DNA of 64,000 bases, taken from assembly GCF_005889725.1 (NCBI RefSeq), contig NZ_VCKX01000023.1, positions 1 through 64,000 on the forward strand, written 5' to 3'. Shown here in pieces: positions 12,869 to 58,380 of the stretch. The notes beneath the pieces were generated by a model. The model was not told the origin of the DNA. It saw only the letters and a list, made by a program, of their open reading frames with translations, and did no database searches. This stretch comes from Nonomuraea zeae (GTDB taxonomy: Bacteria > Actinomycetota > Actinomycetes > Streptosporangiales > Streptosporangiaceae). The translations under genes and the position numbers were made by a program. Position 1 is the first letter of the stretch. Every line of letters begins with the position of its first letter.

Positions 12869-13485
12869 TGCCGCGGCTGCGGCAGGTCCCGCGCGAGGAG
12901 ATGACCGACCCGGTCGTGCAGTTCTTCTACGACCACCTGTTCGCCGACGGCAGGGAGGGCACCGCCACCGGATCGCCGGGCGACTGGTGGACGGTGTTCG
13001 CGCTCGACCCGAAGATCTTCCGGCACTGCGTCAAGGGCTTCCAGCTCTACCGGGAGTCGGCGCTGGACCCGGTGCTGCGCGAGCTGGCGCAGACCAGGGC
13101 TGGATGGTCGCGGCAGAGCCAGTTCGTGTTCTCGCAGCACTGCAAGCAGCTGCGGGCGCTCGGCGTGCCCGAGGAGAAGGTGCGGGCCGTCGCCTGCTGG
13201 CCGGTCAGCGACCAGTTCGACGAGCTGGAGCGGGCGGTGCTGGCCTACACCGACGCGCTGGTGCTGGACGGCGGCCGGGTGCACGACGAGGTGTTCGCGG
13301 CGCTCTCCGGGCGGCTGCCGGACGAGCAGATCCTGGAGCTGACGTACGTGACATGCCTGTACGAGATGCACGCGACGATGGCGCGGGCGCTGCGGCTGGA
13401 GTTCGACGACCGGCCCGATCCGATCGTGGAGGTGCCGGCGCCCGAGGGGTACGGCACCCGGGACATCGCCGACGAGCTGACCTGA
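12868..13485 (+). CDS. Carboxymuconolactone decarboxylase (CMD/AhpD-like) family protein
   Basis: A 205-residue all-helical CMD-family protein (core about residues 60-175; SQHCKQLRALGVPEEKV and CLYEMHATMARAL). The family includes gamma-carboxymuconolactone decarboxylases and AhpD-type disulfide reductases. The typical CxxC pair is not present, so a peroxidase-linked redox role is less likely than a lyase or hydrolase role. It is translationally coupled to the VOC protein, which points to a joint role in aromatic or reactive-carbonyl metabolism. The ATG at 12868 overlaps the VOC stop. The stop lies inside a 19-bp tandem array. Confidence 0.88.
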   Translation: MPRLRQVPREEMTDPVVQFFYDHLFADGREGTATGSPGDWWTVFALDPKIFRHCVKGFQLYRESALDPVLRELAQTRAGWSRQSQFVFSQHCKQLRALGVPEEKVRAVACWPVSDQFDELERAVLAYTDALVLDGGRVHDEVFAALSGRLPDEQILELTYVTCLYEMHATMARALRLEFDDRPDPIVEVPAPEGYGTRDIADELT

Positions 13486-13548
13486 CCAGTCCGACCGGGC
13501 CTGACCAGTCCGACCGGGCCTGACCAGTCCGACCGGGCCTGACCGGGC
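13482..13548. repeat. 19-bp tandem repeat (3 perfect copies plus a partial) over the CMD stop codon
   Basis: The unit CTGACCAGTCCGACCGGGC occurs perfectly at 13482-13500, 13501-13519 and 13520-13538, and the partial CTGACCGGGC follows to 13548. The first unit carries the TGA stop of the CMD gene. Because 19 is not a multiple of three, the four TGA triplets fall successively in all reading frames. Confidence 0.95.
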
Positions 13549-32710: not shown

Positions 32711-32794
32711 GCGCCTTTACGTTGTAGATCACATAATCGCCTCGATGTCGCGAAAATTACTGGAAAATGCTGGGACTGTTGGTACGCTCGCGCC

Positions 32795-33565
32795 ATGAGT
32801 GACCAGCTGGACGATCTTGAGCGACGGATCGACGAGCTGCGGGCCGGGGTGCGCACGGCGATGCGGGTCAGGGACAGCGCGACCGCCCGCACCCTGCGCG
32901 CCGAGCTGCGCTCGGCCGAGCGCGCCTGGGACGCCCTGGTGAGCGGCGAGCCGGCCAGGCCCAAGCCCGAGCCGCCGCGCCTGGTCACCGTGCGCGAGCA
33001 GGTGCACCAGGGGCTGCGGCTCCTGGGGGCGTCCGCCCAGCCGAGGCTGGTCGTGGCCGTCAGCGACGCGTTCTTCGGCGGCACGATCCGCAGCAGCCAG
33101 CTCACCAGCCTGCGCAGGGACGAGGAGCGCTCGTTCAGGTCCTCGCCGTTCGGGCGGCCGTACTATCTGTGCGCCGCGCTAACGGACCGCCTCTCCCCCG
33201 CCCGCGGCCTGCTGACGCTCAGCTCCTGGCCGATCGAGCGGCGCGTGGTCGGCCCGCTCAGCCCTCGCGTCGACTTCCTGACCTGCGCCATCGCGGTGGC
33301 CGAGCACGAGAGCGACGACGGGCGGGCGGCCCGCTTACTGGTCAGGATGGCCAGGAACATCCCCGGCGCCACCGACGCCACGTTCGGGCCGCCGGACCCC
33401 GCCCGGGTGATCGAGGCGGCCCGCGCCGAGCTGGCCGTGCACGCCGAACGCGACACGCGGGACCGCGCCGAGCTGGCCGGACGCGCCGTGGCGCAGCTCG
33501 GTGACGCCGCCCGGCTGTTCGGCGCCGCTACGCTGAGCACGATCAAGAAGGAGAAGGCGAAGTGA
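32795..33565 (+). CDS. Unknown coiled-coil/wHTH-like protein, first gene of the nuclease-helicase operon
   Basis: A 256-residue protein of unknown family. Residues 1-50 are charged and heptad-like (LDDLERRIDELRAG..., ELRSAERAWDAL), predicting a coiled coil. Residues 62-165 hold a compact domain with GTIRSSQLTSLRRDEERSF and RPYYLCAALT, which has the look of a winged-helix DNA-binding unit, then SWPIERRVVGPLSPRVDFL. The C-terminus is helical and Lys-rich (STIKKEKAK). Its stop overlaps the nuclease start as GTGA, so it is translated with it. It may be the DNA- or partner-binding subunit of the complex; that is inference. Confidence 0.8.
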   Translation: MSDQLDDLERRIDELRAGVRTAMRVRDSATARTLRAELRSAERAWDALVSGEPARPKPEPPRLVTVREQVHQGLRLLGASAQPRLVVAVSDAFFGGTIRSSQLTSLRRDEERSFRSSPFGRPYYLCAALTDRLSPARGLLTLSSWPIERRVVGPLSPRVDFLTCAIAVAEHESDDGRAARLLVRMARNIPGATDATFGPPDPARVIEAARAELAVHAERDTRDRAELAGRAVAQLGDAARLFGAATLSTIKKEKAK

Positions 33566-34692
33566 GCGGCTTGAAGCGCGAAGGCGACCCTGTGCACCGG
33601 CTCGACGCGTTGCGCGGCACCACGCCACAGAAGCCGCATGACGCCCGCGCCATCGCGGCGCTGGCCGCCAACCCCGGCTGCACCCGCCGCGCCCTGCTCG
33701 ACGGGGCCGGCCTTGACAAGGACGCGGCGGCCCGGCACCTGGGCTTCCCCGCGCCGTTCGGGCAGTCGCCGTTCGCGATCACGCGCGGCAACGTGTTCGA
33801 GTCGCTGGTCAAGGCCGACGGCTGCGCGGAGCTGCTGCGGATGCTGCGCGAGCTGCTCGGCCTGCCGGTCGCCGAGGTGGCCTACCACGACGTGGAGAAC
33901 GTCGGCGCCCACCTGCGCCACGCCCACACCAGGGCGCTGATCGACCGCGCGGCGGCCGACGGCCAGGACTCGGGCACCCTGTACGACCATCCGCTGCTGA
34001 GCCTGGAGATCGCCGGCCATACCGCGTACCTGGAGCCCGACGTGGTGGCCTTCCAGCTCGGCGGCCGCTTCCACATCGTGGAGATCAAGTCCTTCGCGGT
34101 GATCGACGGGCAGGCCGACCCCGCGGCGGTGGCCGCGGCGGCCCGGCAGGCGGCGGTGTACGTGCTCGCGCTGCGCGGCCTGCTGGAGGAGCTGGGCCAC
34201 GACCCGCTGAAGGTCTCGCACGACGTGGTCCTCGTCTGCCCGGAGAACTTCGCCAACCGCCCGGTCGCGACCCTGGTCGACGTGCGCAAGCAGCTCGCCG
34301 TGCTGCGGCGCCAGCTCACCAGGATGACCACGCTCGACCGGCTGCTCGCGGAGCTGCCCGACGATCTCACCTTCGACCTGCGGCCCGGCGAGGACGGCCG
34401 GCCGACCAGGCCCGTCGCCGAGCTGGCCGACGCGCTGCGCAGGGCGACGGCCCGCTACGCGCCCGACTGCCTGTCGGCGTGCGACATGTGCTTCTTCTGC
34501 CGCGACGAGGCCCGCCAGGAGGGCGCGTCCGACCTGCTGGGCCGCAACGTGCGCGACGAGCTGGGCGGGGTGGCCTCGGTGGCGGAGGCGCTCGGCCTGG
34601 CTGACGGTGCCCGCGACCCCGCCGAGGGGCAGGAGGAGATCGCCCGGCTGCTCCGCAACGCCGAACGCCTGCGCAGGGAGTGCCTGAATTGA
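33562..34692 (+). CDS. Cas4/Dna2-like RecB-family nuclease with iron-sulfur cysteines
   Basis: A 376-residue protein that carries the full motif set of the PD-(D/E)xK exonucleases of the RecB/Cas4/Dna2 group: Cys40 in a CxRR element (GCTRRALL), Gly76xxxGlu80 (RGNVFE), Asp160 (LEPD), Glu174-x-Lys176 (VEIKSF), Gln196xxxTyr200 (RQAAVY), and a C-terminal cluster Cys303, Cys307, Cys310 and Cys313. One N-terminal and three C-terminal Cys are the ligands of the [4Fe-4S] cluster in Cas4, AddB and Dna2; here a fourth C-terminal Cys is present. It would degrade or trim single-stranded DNA ends. No cas1/cas2 are nearby. Its operon partner, an SF1 helicase, argues for a Dna2- or AddAB-like machine. Confidence 0.88.
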   Translation: MSGLKREGDPVHRLDALRGTTPQKPHDARAIAALAANPGCTRRALLDGAGLDKDAAARHLGFPAPFGQSPFAITRGNVFESLVKADGCAELLRMLRELLGLPVAEVAYHDVENVGAHLRHAHTRALIDRAAADGQDSGTLYDHPLLSLEIAGHTAYLEPDVVAFQLGGRFHIVEIKSFAVIDGQADPAAVAAAARQAAVYVLALRGLLEELGHDPLKVSHDVVLVCPENFANRPVATLVDVRKQLAVLRRQLTRMTTLDRLLAELPDDLTFDLRPGEDGRPTRPVAELADALRRATARYAPDCLSACDMCFFCRDEARQEGASDLLGRNVRDELGGVASVAEALGLADGARDPAEGQEEIARLLRNAERLRRECLN

Positions 34693-34732
34693 GCCCGCTG
34701 ATGCCGAACGCCCCGCGCGGGGAGTGCCCGAC

Positions 34733-36160
34733 GTGAGCCTGCTGACCTCGCTCGCGCGGCTGCGGGCCCTGCAGGAGGGCCGCGCGCAGCCCGTCGCGAC
34801 CGTCCGGCACTGCCATCTGGCGGACCGGCCGATGATGTTCATCCCGCTCAAGCTGTCCGGCGAGGCCGCGGCGCCGCTGGCCGCGATGCTCGGCACCGAC
34901 AGGGAGCGCCCGCGGCTGCTCGTGGTGACCCAGCCGCGCAACCGCGACCTGCGCTTCGCCTGGGCCGCCGAGCTGGCCGGGGTGCTGCTGCCGTACCTGG
35001 AGGGGTTCCTGGCCGACACCGAGACGGTGGAGCGGAAGAACTCCGACCCCTACGAGCGGACGCTGGACGCGCCGCAGCTCCTCGTGCCGAACCCGGCCGG
35101 CGTGGCCTTCACCAGGCTGCTCGGCCGCTCGACGCGTTTTCGCCGGGCCGACGGCCCCTATCCGGTGCCCGAGTCGGTGCCGCTGCTGGGGCGGTGGCTG
35201 ACCTATCTCGCCGAACGGGCCGCCTACCCCGGCTCGTCGCTGCTGCTGTCGGCGACCGAGGAGCTGGGCCGGCACTGGGCCAGCGGGCAGAGCTCGCTGG
35301 AGGACGCCAACCTGGCCGCGCTGCTCGGCTGGATCACGACGGGGCCGGGCGACGACGCCGAGGACCCGCTGATCTGGCCGCCCGCGGGGCCCGCGACCGA
35401 TCCGGGGTTCGACGCCGAGGTGCTCGCGCCCGCGATCGAGAGCGAGTCGCCCGAGCGCATCACCGAGGCGCTGCGCACGCAGCTCGAGCCCACGTGGCGG
35501 CTCATGTGGCAGGCCGCCGACCTGCTCGCGGGCCTTGAGGAGGGCCCGAGCGCGGCACAGCGGTGGGAGCAGGACCGCGGCTCGTTCAGCGCCATGGCGG
35601 CGCACATCGCCGAGGGCGCGCCGCCGCAGGCCCGCCGCGACGGCGCCGTCACCGCCGCGGCCAAGCTGGCCCGGATGGAACGCGCCCAGGCCGCCTACGA
35701 CGTGCAGCGCGCCTACGACGACCCGCTCGTCATGGCCGAGTACCGGCTGACCGGCGAGGCGTTCGCGGGCGAGGTCGTCGAGACCGACCCGGGCAACACC
35801 GAGGGCGAGGGCCGCTCGCGCAAGCTCCGCCCGCTGGTGGTGGTCAAGACCGACGACCCCGTACGCCTGGCGCCCGGCACCTCCCTCGGCACCCCGCAAC
35901 GCCGCGCCCAGGGCGCCGAGCTCGTGTCGGCCGGCGAGGGGCTGGTCACCCTGAAGATCACCAAAGGCATGGGCAGGGGCAAGACGGCGGCGCCCGGTGC
36001 CGTGCCCGAGGTGGGCGAGCGCGTCTGCTACACCTCGCTGACCGACGACTTCCAGGGCTCGCCGAACCTGCCCGACTCCGAGGCCACGCCGTGGACCCAC
36101 GGCGGGCCGCCGCAAGAGTACGTGCCCGACGACGAGGACGCGCAGGAGGAGTGGTCGTGA
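34733..36160 (+). CDS. Large unknown protein of the nuclease-helicase operon
   Basis: A 475-residue protein without a recognised domain. The N-terminal 150 residues include MMFIPLKLSGEAAAPLAAML and RLLVVTQPRNRDLRFAWAAE, the middle is helical, and residues about 355-430 look like a small beta-barrel (VVVKTDDPVRLAPGTSL, GLVTLKITKG, VGERVCYTSL), a feature that UPF1/DNA2-type helicases carry as an inserted barrel. The tail is acidic (PDDEDAQEEWS). GTG 34733 has GGGGAG 8 bases before it; a GTG 9 bases upstream is possible. The stop overlaps the helicase GTG. It may load or regulate the helicase; this is speculation. Confidence 0.78.
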   Translation: MSLLTSLARLRALQEGRAQPVATVRHCHLADRPMMFIPLKLSGEAAAPLAAMLGTDRERPRLLVVTQPRNRDLRFAWAAELAGVLLPYLEGFLADTETVERKNSDPYERTLDAPQLLVPNPAGVAFTRLLGRSTRFRRADGPYPVPESVPLLGRWLTYLAERAAYPGSSLLLSATEELGRHWASGQSSLEDANLAALLGWITTGPGDDAEDPLIWPPAGPATDPGFDAEVLAPAIESESPERITEALRTQLEPTWRLMWQAADLLAGLEEGPSAAQRWEQDRGSFSAMAAHIAEGAPPQARRDGAVTAAAKLARMERAQAAYDVQRAYDDPLVMAEYRLTGEAFAGEVVETDPGNTEGEGRSRKLRPLVVVKTDDPVRLAPGTSLGTPQRRAQGAELVSAGEGLVTLKITKGMGRGKTAAPGAVPEVGERVCYTSLTDDFQGSPNLPDSEATPWTHGGPPQEYVPDDEDAQEEWS

Positions 36161-37455
36161 CCGCCCTGACCGAAGCCGAAGCCAGGAGCCCGGAGCAGGT
36201 CATCAGGGACGTCCTCGCCGACCTGCCCCGGCATCGGGGCGTGGTGGTCGACTCCCCGCCCGGAGCGGGCAAGTCCACCCTGGTCGTACGCGCCGCCGCG
36301 CACATCGCGGCCACCGGCGAGCCGCTGATGATCGTCGCCCAGACCAACGAGCAGGTCGACGACCTGGTGAGCAGGATCTCCGCCAAGCATCCGCGGCTGA
36401 CCGTGGGCCGCCTGTCGGCCGGCGGGTACGTGCCGCCGCTGCGGCTGCTGGAGCTGCCCGGCGTACGGGTCGGGACGCGGATCCAGGACCTGGGCGATCC
36501 GGACGTCGTCATCGCCACGGCGGACAAATGGGCGTGGATCAGCGGCCGGGTGTGGCCCTGGGCGATCGTGGACGAGGCGTACCAGATGCGCTCGGACAAG
36601 CTGCTGCGGATCGCGGGGCTGTTCGAGCGGGCGCTGTTCGTGGGCGATCCCGGGCAGCTCGACCCGTTCTCGATCGTGGACGGCGACCGCTGGTCGGGGC
36701 TGTCCTGGGATCCGTTGCAGAGTGCCGTGTCGGTGCTGCTGCGGCACAACCCGGACCTGCCCGTGCACCGGCTGCCGGTGTCGTGGCGGCTGCCCGCCTC
36801 GGCCGCGCCCGTGGTGTCGCGGGCGTTCTACCCGTTCACCGGGTTCCGCTCCGGCACCGATCACGGGGACAGGCGGCTGGAGCTCGTCACGGGCGGCATG
36901 GGCACGGTGCACGACCGGGCGCTGGAGGAGGCGGCCAGGTCGGGGTGGGCGCTGCTGGAGCTGCCGAACCGGCACACCGTCCGTACCGACGGGGAGGCCG
37001 TGCAGGCGGTGGCCCTGCTGGCGGCCCGCCTGCTGCAACGCGGCGCCCTGGCGACCTCGGAGCAGGGCGAGCGGCCGGTGACGGCGGACCGGATCGCGGT
37101 CGGCGCGGCGCACCGGGACCAGGTGGCCGCGATCAGGAACGCGGGACTGCCGCCGGAGATCACCGTGGACACCGCGAACCGGCTGCAGGGCCGCGAGTAC
37201 GACGTCACGTTCGTGCTGCACCCGCTGTCGGGCCGGCGCGACGCCACGGCCTTCCACCTGGAGTCGGGACGGCTGTGCGTGCTGGCCTCGCGGCACCGGC
37301 ACGCGTGCGTGGTGGTGGCCAGGGCGGGCATCGCCGAGCTCCTGGACGCCCATCCGTCGGCCGAGCCGGTGCAGCTGGGGGTGCCGGTGAAGTTCCCCGA
37401 CGGGTGGGAGGCCAACCAGTCGGTGCTGGAGCACCTGTCCAGGCACCGCGTCTGA
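36157..37455 (+). CDS. SF1 (UPF1/DNA2-like) helicase
   Basis: A 432-residue ATPase with the ordered motifs of superfamily 1 helicases: Walker A PPGAGKST (Lys39), Q/Ia region MIVAQTNEQVDDLV, motif II IVDEAY (Asp139-Glu140), motif III VGDPGQLDP (163-171), motif IV-like VSWRLP, motif V TANRLQGREYDVTFV (Gln344) and motif VI-like LCVLASRHRHACVVVAR. Motifs V and VI follow the UPF1/DNA2 style (QGRE...SRHRHA). It is compact and lacks the usual nuclease or barrel domains, which appear to be supplied by the neighbouring genes. GTG 36157 overlaps the upstream stop, with AGGAGG before it. Its own stop lies in a 13-bp duplication. Confidence 0.88.
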   Translation: MTALTEAEARSPEQVIRDVLADLPRHRGVVVDSPPGAGKSTLVVRAAAHIAATGEPLMIVAQTNEQVDDLVSRISAKHPRLTVGRLSAGGYVPPLRLLELPGVRVGTRIQDLGDPDVVIATADKWAWISGRVWPWAIVDEAYQMRSDKLLRIAGLFERALFVGDPGQLDPFSIVDGDRWSGLSWDPLQSAVSVLLRHNPDLPVHRLPVSWRLPASAAPVVSRAFYPFTGFRSGTDHGDRRLELVTGGMGTVHDRALEEAARSGWALLELPNRHTVRTDGEAVQAVALLAARLLQRGALATSEQGERPVTADRIAVGAAHRDQVAAIRNAGLPPEITVDTANRLQGREYDVTFVLHPLSGRRDATAFHLESGRLCVLASRHRHACVVVARAGIAELLDAHPSAEPVQLGVPVKFPDGWEANQSVLEHLSRHRV

Positions 37456-41747: not shown

Positions 41748-41782
41748 CCGGGGCCCCTGCGACACCGTCGCAGGGGCCCCGG
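41748..41782 (+). terminator. Perfect 16-bp hairpin terminator
   Basis: The arm CCGGGGCCCCTGCGAC (41748-41763) and its exact complement (41767-41782) enclose a 3-base loop, 74 bases after the ATPase stop. This is one of the most stable hairpins in the window. A 14-bp tandem array begins at the next base. Confidence 0.9.
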
Positions 41783-41910
41783 CCGTGTGTCCCGGGCCGT
41801 GTGTCCCGGGCCGTGTGTCCCGGGCCGTGTGTCCCGGGCAGTGTGTCCCGGGCAGTGTGTTCCAAGGCCGTGTGTCGGGGCCGTGCGTTCCAGGCCGTGT
41901 CCCCGGCCCT
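41783..41910. repeat. 14-bp tandem array after the terminator
   Basis: CCGTGTGTCCCGGG is repeated exactly at 41783, 41797, 41811 and 41825; a fifth unit (41839) has one change, and degenerate copies run on to about 41910. The array makes overlapping open frames in several registers, which I do not treat as genes. Confidence 0.93.
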
Positions 41911-46856: not shown

Positions 46857-46958
46857 GCTCAGGGTTGTGGCTCGTGGGCAGGGCTCAGGATTCGTGGCGG
46901 ATGGCCCCGTCGTGGGCCGAGCTCAGGGTTCGAGGTGGCGGAAGGCCTCGTGGGCGGA
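46857..46958. repeat. Duplicated 3' end of the third paralogue gene
   Basis: Units starting GCTCAGG occur at 46921, 46883 (offset 38) and 46857 (offset 26, internally deleted), followed by related GTGGCGGAnGGCC and CGTGGGC segments. The unit at 46921-46958 includes the stop codon and final codons (SSAHEAFRHLEP) of the leftward gene; the second copy would code for the altered SSAHDGAIRHES. Confidence 0.8.
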
Positions 46959-47804
46959 GCTCAGGCTCCGTCTCAGCGCCTGGTCGAGCCGGTCGGCGTC
47001 CTGCGCCAGCCGCTCCAGCTCCGGCAGGGCGAATCCGTCCGCGCCGGTCTCGGCCACGAGTTCCTCGTACTGGTGCACCCGGCCGCGCAGCTCCTCGATC
47101 TGGTGGTGGGCCAGGTAGGCGCGCTCGGCGTCGGTGACGTTGGCGGCGTACCGTTCCAGCGCCTCGACCCGGGCCAGCACCGCGTCCTCGCTGTTGTCCA
47201 GCGCCCTGGCCAGCGGCGCGGCCACGGCCTCCACTTCGGGCGTGAGCCCGTGCGAGACGGTCTCCCTGTGCTTGCCGCGCAGCGCCGACAGCTTGGCCAG
47301 CAGCCGCGCGATCTCCCACTCCTGGGCGGGCAGCATCACCGCGTTGCGCACGTCGTCGAGCAGCCCGTCGGCGTTGACCCGCGAGCCGCTCACGGTGGCC
47401 ACGGCCTGCCGGGCGCGGGCGAGCAGTCTTGCCGCGGACTCGTCGAGGTCGTCGGTGAGGACGTAGCGGCCCTCGTACCAGCGCAGTTGTTCGTAGACCT
47501 CCCGCTCGAACTCCATCTCGTCGCCGGGCGGGTCGTCACGGACGAAGAGCATGACCAGCAGCGGGATGCCGAGCAGGATGACGGCCAGCATGAGAAGGCC
47601 GCGGCCCAGCAGGCCCGCGCCCGCGACGACGCCGAGGCTCATGACCGCGCCGACGGCCGCATGCAGGCGGGGACGCAGGCCAGAAGCGGCCCGCTGCGGC
47701 TCGGGAACCCAGCCGTGGCGCATCTTGATCAGCACCTGGCGGCTCTCTCTGAGCAACTGCGCGTCTTCCGGCGGCACCCCGGGGTCTACCACCACATCCG
47801 CCAC
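46923..47804 (-). CDS. Two-TM helical protein, third tandem paralogue
   Basis: A 293-residue protein that shares its whole layout with the two upstream genes: a short N-terminal motif (VVVDPGVPPE), a Trp-containing HGWVPEP segment, two hydrophobic segments (about 50-88), a conserved block NADGLLDDVRNAVMLPAQ (and EWEIARLLAKLSALR after it) at about 145-178 and a long helical tail ending SSAHEAFRHLEP. I do not recognise the family. It is probably a membrane-anchored, coiled-coil-forming protein. The GTG start lies 21 bases after the upstream stop. Confidence 0.85.
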   Translation of the reverse strand: MADVVVDPGVPPEDAQLLRESRQVLIKMRHGWVPEPQRAASGLRPRLHAAVGAVMSLGVVAGAGLLGRGLLMLAVILLGIPLLVMLFVRDDPPGDEMEFEREVYEQLRWYEGRYVLTDDLDESAARLLARARQAVATVSGSRVNADGLLDDVRNAVMLPAQEWEIARLLAKLSALRGKHRETVSHGLTPEVEAVAAPLARALDNSEDAVLARVEALERYAANVTDAERAYLAHHQIEELRGRVHQYEELVAETGADGFALPELERLAQDADRLDQALRRSLSSAHEAFRHLEP

Positions 47805-58282: not shown

Positions 58283-58295
58283 GGCCGGCGCGGGT

Positions 58296-58380
58296 GTCAC
58301 TGGCTCCCGGGAGTCACTGGCTCCCAGGTGTCACTGGCAACCGGCCGTCACTGGCTCCCGGCCGTCACCGGCTCCCGGGC
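58296..58380. repeat. 17-bp tandem repeat, five copies, over the GNAT stop codon
   Basis: Five contiguous 17-bp units related to GTCACTGGCTCCCGGCC begin at 58296, 58313, 58330, 58347 and 58364. The last contains the stop and final codons of the leftward GNAT gene (stop 58365-58367); the other four extend downstream of it. Confidence 0.92.

What the first reader, a model, noticed from the sequence alone, without database searches (positions are those of the whole stretch)
32795..37455. Candidate new system: split Dna2-like nuclease-helicase operon with two unknown subunits
Four genes are coupled (GTGA overlaps at 33562 and 36157, 40-base gap at 34693-34732). The second gene has the complete Cas4/Dna2/AddB motif set (Cys40, Asp160, Glu174/Lys176, Gln196xxxTyr200, Cys303/307/310/313), and the fourth is a compact SF1 helicase with UPF1/DNA2-style motifs V and VI. 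In eukaryotic Dna2 these two activities share one chain; here they are separate and accompanied by a coiled-coil/wHTH-like protein and a 475-residue protein with a possible small beta-barrel. No cas1, cas2 or recBCD parts are near. It could be a DNA end-resection machine, a plasmid or phage defence system, or a repair complex. I know of no named system with this exact gene order, but I cannot search.
Basis: partly seen in the sequence, partly recalled or inferred. Interest (0 to 1): 0.78.

Follow-up and report, generated by a model that had tools for sequence, protein, structure and literature searches.

The report
Three-chain bacterial DNA2-like nuclease-helicase operon
Many soil actinomycetes, including nearly every genome examined in two genera, carry an unnamed set of genes that looks like the DNA-end-processing enzyme DNA2 cut into three separate proteins, sometimes sitting beside the bacterial Mre11-Rad50 genes, which gives a testable candidate for an overlooked DNA repair or immunity machine.

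Summary
In detail: four tightly coupled genes lie at 32795-37455 (here G1-G4). G2 is a Cas4/AddB/DNA2-type nuclease with four invariant cysteines; G4 is a UPF1/DNA2-type SF1 helicase. Correction: Cys310 is not conserved (53 of 97). G3 is not an unrelated subunit: its C-terminal part has the fold of the stalk and 1B barrel that G4 lacks; its N-terminal part resembles a DnaQ exonuclease without the catalytic DxE. The operon reads as a co-linear three-chain DNA2/Bad-like enzyme plus G1. G3 occurs in 52 of 54 same-genus genomes and 141 of 150 of a genus inferred to be Streptomyces. There the core copy lacks G1 and often (11 of 15) has a PafBC-like promoter, shared with dnaN, dnaE and pcrA. Most G1-bearing copies instead carry CTGG direct repeats. 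Accessory copies sit beside SbcCD (Mre11-Rad50), pPIWI-RE, Wadjet or Hma genes. Best reading: a DNA-end or flap processing machine for repair, recruited more than once to immunity. Nothing was tested at the bench; fold matches are moderate, and G2 and G3 show no significant sequence link to single-chain relatives. New variant of a known kind.

The parts
32757..32788 (+). Promoter region of the operon: CTGG direct repeats with 11-base period followed by TACGCT six bases before the start codon of G1 (perhaps a leaderless transcript)
   Evidence: Exact 32-base sequence once in the window, 0 in 100 shuffles; a looser pattern once in the whole 13.6-Mb genome, 0 in the reversed control; CTGG repeat upstream of G1 in 74 of 90 loci against 18 of 1387 other genes
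32795..33565 (+). G1, 256 aa, coiled-coil-like N-terminus, no known family; travels with the CTGG repeats; likely dedicated regulator or sensor (inference)
33562..34692 (+). G2, 376 aa, iron-staple PD-(D/E)XK nuclease (Cas4/AddB/EXO5/DNA2 type); catalytic Asp160, Glu174, Lys176, Gln196, Tyr200; Cys40, Cys303, Cys307, Cys313
   Evidence: conservation; AlphaFold model pLDDT 85.6; structural matches Cas4 7mi4 Z 9.6, RecB 8.4, EXO5 7.8, AddB 7.2, Dna2 5eax 6.0
34660..34745 (+). 44-base tandem duplication across the G2/G3 junction, which accounts for the 40-base gap
   Evidence: sequence; 4-base overlap at this junction in 48 of 96 loci
34733..36160 (+). G3, 475 aa, two-part protein: DnaQ-like domain and helicase stalk/1B barrel
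34823..35728 (+). G3 residues 31-332: DnaQ-like (DEDD) exonuclease fold; the place of the DxE signature is Pro38/variable 40, so probably not catalytic
   Evidence: KOD polymerase 7omg residues 135-488 Z 9.7, 185 residues, rmsd 3.7; RNase T Z 8.0; Pro38 in 104 of 105, position 40 K/R/T/A
35702..36052 (+). G3 residues 324-440: stalk helix and 1B beta-barrel as in UPF1/IGHMBP2/DNA2-type helicases
   Evidence: IGHMBP2 4b3f Z 9.5, 86 residues, rmsd 2.2; Dna2 5eaw Z 7.7, 87 residues, rmsd 2.4; Sen1 Z 7.5; unrelated barrels reach Z 6.6-7.7 in the same list
36157..37455 (+). G4, 432 aa, compact SF1B motor (RecA1 and RecA2 only), Walker A at residues 33-41 (36253-36279)
   Evidence: AAA_11 3.7e-8, AAA_12 8.8e-6; profile match to SMUBP-2 2.7e-10 and DNA2 3e-8; Walker and motif V/VI residues 101-102 of 102

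Best explanation
The operon encodes a DNA2/Bad-like helicase-nuclease divided into three co-translated chains in the same order as the domains of DNA2: G2 (iron-sulfur nuclease), G3 (DnaQ-like, probably inactive domain, then stalk and 1B barrel) and G4 (RecA1-RecA2 motor). I infer that the chains assemble, that G4 with the G3 barrel moves 5' to 3' on single-stranded DNA, and that G2 cuts the strand ahead of it, so that the complex trims 5' flaps or resects DNA ends. In Streptomyces-type genomes the three-gene core serves DNA repair or replication, often from a damage-type (PafBC-like) promoter. In the window's lineage and in accessory copies a fourth gene, G1, together with CTGG repeats, replaces that control. 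Accessory copies are often coupled to SbcCD (Mre11-Rad50) and lie among immune systems, where the same machine probably degrades invading DNA. Shown here: genes, conservation, predicted folds, neighbours, promoter motifs. Inferred: the Fe-S cluster, assembly, polarity, substrate, regulation by G1, biological role.
For: Co-linear fit to one solved protein, Dna2: G2 to residues 22-419 (5eax, Z 6.0), G3 C-terminal part to 462-567 (5eaw, Z 7.7), G4 to 644-807 (5eax, E 3e-8). IGHMBP2 1B match Z 9.5, rmsd 2.2. Similar domain order in single-chain actinobacterial proteins found with TIGR03491: RNase_H_2, AAA_11, AAA_12 in two of two scanned, preceded by a weak PDDEXK_1 in one of the two; the G4 profile aligns to their columns 749-1129 at 99.5% probability. 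Order kept in 92 of 92 loci. Catalytic and motor residues kept in most or all sequences. G3 found in 52 of 54 genomes of the genus and 141 of 150 of genus g3. PafBC-like promoter TGTCAGTG-N8-YAGACT in 11 of 15 distinct g3 core copies against 5 of 1376 other upstream regions; strict form with the G2 start in 57 of 150 genomes, 0 in the reversed control; the same motif precedes dnaE, dnaN and pcrA genes. SbcD/SbcC beside the operon in 13 of 106 loci from four genera, in two arrangements; 3 of the 80 loci of the unselected scan.
Against: Foldseek gave no match with E <= 0.001 for either model. The Dna2 matches (Z 6.0 and 7.7) lie under the Z 8 that the tool names as possibly only a common arrangement, and the G3 barrel also matches unrelated barrels (riboflavin synthase, lumazine protein, F1-ATPase, siderophore-interacting proteins, a ribosome-assembly entry) at Z 6.6-7.7. 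Profile-profile comparison of G2 and G3 with the single-chain proteins is not significant (E 0.08 and 0.06). No fusion of neighbouring genes was evident among the extracted proteins (one long G2, L080, was not examined). G2 has lost Glu174 and Lys176 in the four pPIWI-RE-linked copies and Asp160 in four other loci, so nuclease activity is not always kept. Four of 15 core copies lack the strict PafBC-like motif, its -10 part departs from the mycobacterial consensus, and a published search did not find the M. smegmatis PafBC motif conserved in S. venezuelae (PMC9380542, passages). In G204 G4 lies about 36 kb from G3. The motif also precedes genes with no evident repair role (cobF, a glycosylhydrolase, a kinase).
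Confidence: 0.6

Rival explanations
1. It is primarily an anti-phage or anti-plasmid system; the widespread core copies are domesticated or simply a fixed immune gene set.
For: Accessory copies lie beside SbcCD, Wadjet, Hma and pPIWI-RE genes, in two genomes near chromosome ends and in two Streptomyces plasmid records; a GmrSD-type or RhuM gene sits between G3 and G4 in three Micromonospora loci.
Against: Near-universal and mostly single-copy in two genera, with partly shared neighbours in the window's family; promoter class shared with dnaN, dnaE and pcrA; no phage record matches G3. The window's own neighbours were not scanned for defence genes; none was obvious by eye.
Confidence: 0.22
2. 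The genes are co-regulated but work apart: G2 a Cas4-like exonuclease, G4 an RNA or DNA helicase of UPF1 type, G3 a structural protein whose fold likenesses are common arrangements.
For: No significant Foldseek E-values, no significant profile similarity of G2 and G3 to the single-chain proteins; unrelated beta-barrels match G3 at Z 6.6-7.7.
Against: The G3 barrel match to helicases has rmsd 2.1-3.0 and recurs across IGHMBP2, Dna2, Sen1 and Setx, with IGHMBP2 above the unrelated barrels; G4 lacks exactly this part; the order is invariant in the extracted loci.
Confidence: 0.12
3. About G1 only: G1 is not a regulator; the CTGG repeats are bound by another factor, and both were lost together by descent.
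For: G1-lacking copies are largely separate lineages, so co-occurrence is partly shared ancestry; no DNA-binding family was recognised in G1.
Against: 0 of 15 G1-lacking copies carry the strict repeats against 74 of 90 with G1, including a within-genus loss in L036 and a G1 remnant without repeats in L069; the motif is unique in the genome.
Confidence: 0.4

Closest known systems
Bad, bacterial DNA2-like helicase-nuclease of Geobacillus stearothermophilus (PMC7430649: abstract, passages, sections 5, 14, 22 read)
   Same: Iron-staple nuclease, extra central domain, SF1B motor, in that order; bacterial
   Different: Bad is one 1245-aa chain, here three chains; Bad's sequence was not compared here; Bad is described as rare and sporadic, this set is near-universal in two genera
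TM0106 family (TIGR03491) nuclease - RNase_H_2 - SF1 helicase single-chain proteins of actinobacteria
   Same: Similar domain order; G4 aligns to their motor
   Different: One chain; DxE visible at the start of their RNase_H_2 part; G2 and G3 do not match the family model
Eukaryotic DNA2
   Same: Nuclease, stalk/1B barrel and motor map co-linearly
   Different: One chain; no counterpart of the DnaQ-like part was matched; ubiquitous and essential there (PMC7430649)
SbcCD / Mre11-Rad50
   Same: Neighbour in 13 of 106 loci; works with DNA2 in eukaryotic resection (recalled)
   Different: Separate proteins; not seen near the window copy
AddAB, AdnAB, RecBCD
   Same: RecB-type nuclease with SF1 motor
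   Different: UvrD-type (SF1A) motors (recalled); here an AAA_11/AAA_12 motor

Membership tests
DNA2/Bad-like helicase-nuclease | RecB-family nuclease motifs with four spanning cysteines (iron staple) | tested here: met
   C40, C303, C307, C313 in 97/97; D160, E174, K176, Q196, Y200 in 92-97 of 97; Cas4, RecB, AddB and EXO5 folds among the best matches
DNA2/Bad-like helicase-nuclease | SF1B motor with UPF1/DNA2 motifs | tested here: met
DNA2/Bad-like helicase-nuclease | Stalk and 1B barrel before the motor | tested here: met
   By predicted fold only, at the C-terminal part of G3, on a separate chain (IGHMBP2 Z 9.5)
DNA2/Bad-like helicase-nuclease | Nuclease and helicase on one polypeptide | tested here: not met
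   Separate chains in the window and in the extracted loci
DNA2/Bad-like helicase-nuclease | Central conserved domain as in Bad | tested here: inconclusive
   G3 N-terminal part is DnaQ-like by fold; no significant profile link to the central part of the TIGR03491 proteins; Bad itself was not compared
DNA2/Bad-like helicase-nuclease | 5'-3' ssDNA motor and ssDNA endonuclease activity, Fe-S cluster | not testable with these tools
   needs purified proteins
TM0106 family (TIGR03491) | Match to the family model | tested here: not met
   No match in the window genome at E <= 0.001 nor for G1-G4 at E <= 1
CRISPR Cas4 | Match to a Cas4 family model | tested here: not met
   No Cas4 match for G2 in Pfam at E <= 1 nor among 18 relatives; the fold alone is Cas4-like
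CRISPR Cas4 | cas1/cas2 next door | not tested
   No profile search of the window for cas1/cas2 was run; none was recognised by eye among the called genes
Known defence systems of PADLOC-DB 2.0 | Match of the operon proteins to a system model | tested here: not met
   G1-G3 no match at E <= 1; G4 only partial helicase matches
AddAB/AdnAB/RecBCD | UvrD-type SF1A motor subunits | tested here: not met
   G4 best matches are AAA_11, AAA_30, AAA_12; UvrD_C_2 only E 0.1

The most novel reading that the evidence does not exclude
Actinomycetes have a complete bacterial counterpart of the eukaryotic MR-DNA2 resection machine: SbcCD (Mre11-Rad50) working with a three-chain DNA2 whose motor is completed in trans by a barrel on another protein fused to a dead DnaQ exonuclease. 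A core, damage-regulated form keeps chromosomes of multicellular actinomycetes intact, and G1-controlled forms were recruited more than once as immune effectors.
Probability: 0.3. Interest if true: 0.9.

Novelty: new variant of a known kind. Interest (0 to 1): 0.72.

Why it matters
A gene set present in almost every genome sampled of two genera, whose first three genes are annotated as hypothetical in the two public Streptomyces plasmid records looked at, may be a DNA end-processing machine in bacteria of industrial importance. It offers a dissectable DNA2: nuclease, barrel and motor can be removed one at a time. It gives a structural lead on the unexplained central domain of bacterial DNA2-like proteins, suggests a PafBC-type promoter class in Streptomyces that also covers dnaN, dnaE and pcrA, and links Mre11-Rad50, DNA2-like enzymes and immunity in one locus.

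Tried and rejected
Pfam, NCBIfam, PADLOC-DB and PHROGs gave nothing usable for G1-G3 (two Pfam hits for G2 at E 0.06 and 0.2, one PHROG hit for G1 at E 0.15). Profile searches of PDB sequences: G2 matched designed repeat proteins over 31 residues and Bse634I at E 0.3, G3 one protein at E 1.8, G1 coiled-coil and designed proteins at E 0.005 and above; not used. A first profile comparison was run in the wrong alignment mode and repeated.

Idea that the split set and the TM0106 fusions replace each other: not supported. 48 of 396 phylum genomes pass the TIGR03491 cut-off and 1 of the 14 G3-bearing ones (G050) does too, about what chance gives. Fusion genes as direct proof: none evident. A phage home: no phage record matched G3. 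tRNAs and Rfam families in the window: none.

Literature: nine full-text searches on the operon and its kin listed no paper whose title or abstract describes it, and one on PafBC; only open-licence PMC papers are held, and many listed papers were not opened. Papers seen: PMC7430649 (abstract, passages, three sections); PMC3702460, PMC5704561, PMC10482375, PMC9380542, PMC5656591 (passages); all others in listings only.

Rows dropped: loci under 7,000 bases (L081-L098, L111-L117) were left out of the neighbour table; loci whose start codon could not be set were left out of the spacing counts. Of 90 G1-bearing loci 16 lack the strict CTGG pattern: some probably because the gene start was misplaced (such as L014, L019, L031), some with variant repeats by eye (L101, L182, L183, L185-L187), others simply lack it. 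One G1-lacking row with a hit (L061) was discarded because its contig ends inside G2. The SbcCD count is enriched: L178-L187 were fetched because they were second copies; in the unselected 80 loci it is 3. Two of the 13 (L181, L188) hold only pieces of SbcCD. The 31 G2-first rows include duplicates of the same genomes and one truncated accessory copy (L113); 11 of 15 counts distinct g3 core copies.

Full report
What is there. Four genes lie head to tail at 32795-37455 with two GTGA overlaps and one 40-base gap. The window is contig C162 of an unnamed 13.6-Mb genome; the best-matching named loci are Nonomuraea, so I take the genus to be Nonomuraea. The gap is explained by a 44-base tandem duplication at the G2/G3 junction; 48 of 96 loci have a 4-base overlap there.

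Conservation. A scan with G3 kept 80 loci from named genomes. tblastn with the window proteins found G2 and G3 in 80 of 80, G4 in 78 of 80 (the two misses end at the contig edge) and G1 in 73 of 80. In the wider set of 106 loci the order G2-G3-G4 is kept in 92 of 92 with all three extracted, G1-G2-G3-G4 in 79 of 79. Whole-genome searches with a G3 profile: 52 of 54 genomes of the genus, 141 of 150 genomes of genus g3, 48 of 296 of the class, 14 of 396 of the phylum. Genus g3 is unnamed by the tool; I infer Streptomyces because its accessory copies branch with those of two named Streptomyces plasmids.

G2 is a nuclease. No family model recognises it; two of 18 family members reach PDDEXK_1 weakly. 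The AlphaFold model (pLDDT 85.6) matches mostly RecB/Cas4/lambda-exonuclease-type nucleases at the top: Cas4 7mi4 Z 9.6, a DinG 8.7, RecB 8.4, MGME1 8.2, lambda exonuclease 8.1, EXO5 7.8, AddB 7.2, Dna2 6.0. Foldseek E-values are not significant (best 0.0043). Cys40, Cys303, Cys307 and Cys313 are invariant (97/97), which fits an iron staple; Cys310 is not (53/97). Asp160, Glu174, Lys176 and Gln196 are kept in 92-94 of 97.

G4 is a bare motor. It matches SMUBP-2 (IGHMBP2) and DNA2 by profile with the Walker and motif V/VI residues complete, but its Walker A begins at residue 33, so it has no room for the stalk and 1B barrel that come before the motor in this helicase family.

G3 supplies them. 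Its model (pLDDT 85.7) has two parts. Residues 324-440 match the 1B region of IGHMBP2 (Z 9.5, 86 residues, rmsd 2.2), Dna2 (Z 7.7, residues 462-567 of 5eaw), Sen1 and Setx; unrelated barrels reach Z 6.6-7.7. Residues 31-332 match DnaQ-like exonucleases (KOD polymerase Z 9.7; RNase T 8.0; TREX1 7.2). The DxE signature is missing: position 38 is Pro in 104 of 105 and position 40 varies. Foldseek gives Dna2 as its first hit but at E 0.018. Thus G2, the end of G3, and G4 fall in order on Dna2 (22-419, 462-567, 644-807).

Single-chain relatives. Of 26 regions fetched around TIGR03491 matches, 24 gave an open frame of 916-1403 aa with a P-loop; two scanned with Pfam show RNase_H_2, then AAA_11 and AAA_12, and one of them a weak PDDEXK_1 in front. 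The G4 profile aligns to their motor at 99.5% probability; G2 and G3 do not reach significance, although their first alignments lie in the expected regions. The published enzyme Bad has nuclease, an unexplained central domain and an SF1B motor in one chain, and a second class is said to occur in mycobacteria and Rhodococcus (PMC7430649). The present set is a divided version of this kind, not a member in the strict sense.

Two forms. In g3 genomes the usual copy has G2-G3-G4 only. Of 23 genomes searched for G1, 13 had it: twelve g3 genomes that hold an accessory copy, plus G050. The ten without are nine g3 genomes with only the core copy, and G204. A tree of 69 loci on G3+G4 puts the core copies in one clade and the accessory Streptomyces copies in two places, one SbcCD-linked and one pPIWI-RE-linked; deep branches are poorly supported.

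Promoters. Upstream of G1 lie CTGG direct repeats of 10-11 base period and a TANNNT-like box just before the start codon; the repeat is seen in at least one locus of 12 of 13 named genera. The strict repeat is found in 74 of 90 G1-first loci, in 0 of 15 usable G1-lacking loci, and in 18 of 1387 control genes; in the window genome the motif occurs once (32759-32788). Core copies of g3 instead carry TGTCAGTG-N8-YAGACT (11 of 15 distinct copies; 5 of 1376 controls), with the spacing of the mycobacterial damage promoter tTGTCRgtg-8-TannnT quoted in PMC5656591 but mostly CAGACT in the -10 place. Exact motif plus start codon is found in 57 of 150 g3 genomes, 0 in the reversed control. Over five genomes the motif occurs 5-9 times each, 0 in the reversed control, and precedes dnaE, dnaN, pcrA, cobF, a NADAR-type gene, a glycosylhydrolase and a protein kinase among others. 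PMC9380542 reports that an initial search did not find the M. smegmatis PafBC motif conserved in S. venezuelae, so this variant deserves a test.

Neighbours. SbcD and SbcC genes lie directly downstream of G4 in Kibdelosporangium, Actinoplanes and Micromonospora (3 of the 80 unselected loci), and divergently upstream of G1 in ten Streptomyces accessory copies: 13 of 106 loci in all, two with only pieces. Four further Streptomyces copies have pPIWI-RE genes (PprPDDEXK, PprRE, PprDinG) in that place, and there G2 has lost Glu174 and Lys176. Wadjet genes follow in five loci, HmaA and HmaB in one. An SMC/RecF-like ATPase gene is divergent upstream in six loci. A Streptomyces plasmid record shows the row SMC ATPase - SbcD - G1-G2-G3-G4 - DUF3375 - DUF4194 - ATP-binding protein - JetD; a second has the same row with the SbcCD part broken; in both, G1-G3 are annotated hypothetical and G4 as an AAA protein. 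The window copy has ordinary neighbours by eye, some of them shared across its family.

Reading. The parts point to a machine that moves on single-stranded DNA and cuts it, used in chromosome maintenance and recruited beside immune systems. The Fe-S cluster, assembly, polarity, substrate and the role of G1 are inference. I give the co-linear three-chain DNA2-like reading 0.6, and the stronger claim of a bacterial MR-DNA2 machine 0.3.

Noticed in passing
L057, L059, L060, L052 (between G3 and G4): The gap between G3 and G4 takes insertions: a GmrSD/HEC-05-type gene in two Micromonospora loci, a RhuM-type gene in a third, and an unidentified reverse-strand 523-aa frame in Sphaerisporangium melleum.
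   Followed up: partly
L101, L185, L186, L187: pPIWI-RE modules lie divergently beside G1-G4 in four Streptomyces loci, where the G2 nuclease has lost Glu174 and Lys176 and a separate PDDEXK protein sits next door.
   Followed up: partly
L191-L220 (unnamed Streptomyces-type genomes): TGTCAGTG-N8-YAGACT precedes dnaE, dnaN, pcrA, cobF, NADAR-type and kinase genes, suggesting a PafBC-type regulon in Streptomyces.
   Followed up: partly
G536 (L178), G570 (L179), NZ_CP108489.1 (L189): Accessory G3 copies lie about 7 kb (G536) and 22 kb (G570, one copy near each end) from chromosome contig ends and about 13 kb from the end of a linear plasmid; Wadjet and Lamassu were reported enriched at Streptomyces ends (PMC10482375, passages).
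   Followed up: no
41777-41900: 14-base tandem array CCCGGGCCGTGTGT, about 9 copies, in a stretch where no gene was called.
   Followed up: no
13481-13544; 46871-46965; 58291-58380: Short tandem arrays: 19-base unit 3.4 copies at 100% identity, 38-base unit 2.5 copies, 17-base unit 5.3 copies.
   Followed up: no
L105 (G204): G2-G3 are followed by a gene that clusters with a GGDEF/EAL protein, and G4 lies about 36 kb away.
   Followed up: partly
L036 (Nonomuraea sediminis): G1 and the CTGG repeats are absent and G2 has changed catalytic residues (Asp160 to Ser, Glu174 to Val) while G3 and G4 are kept.
   Followed up: no
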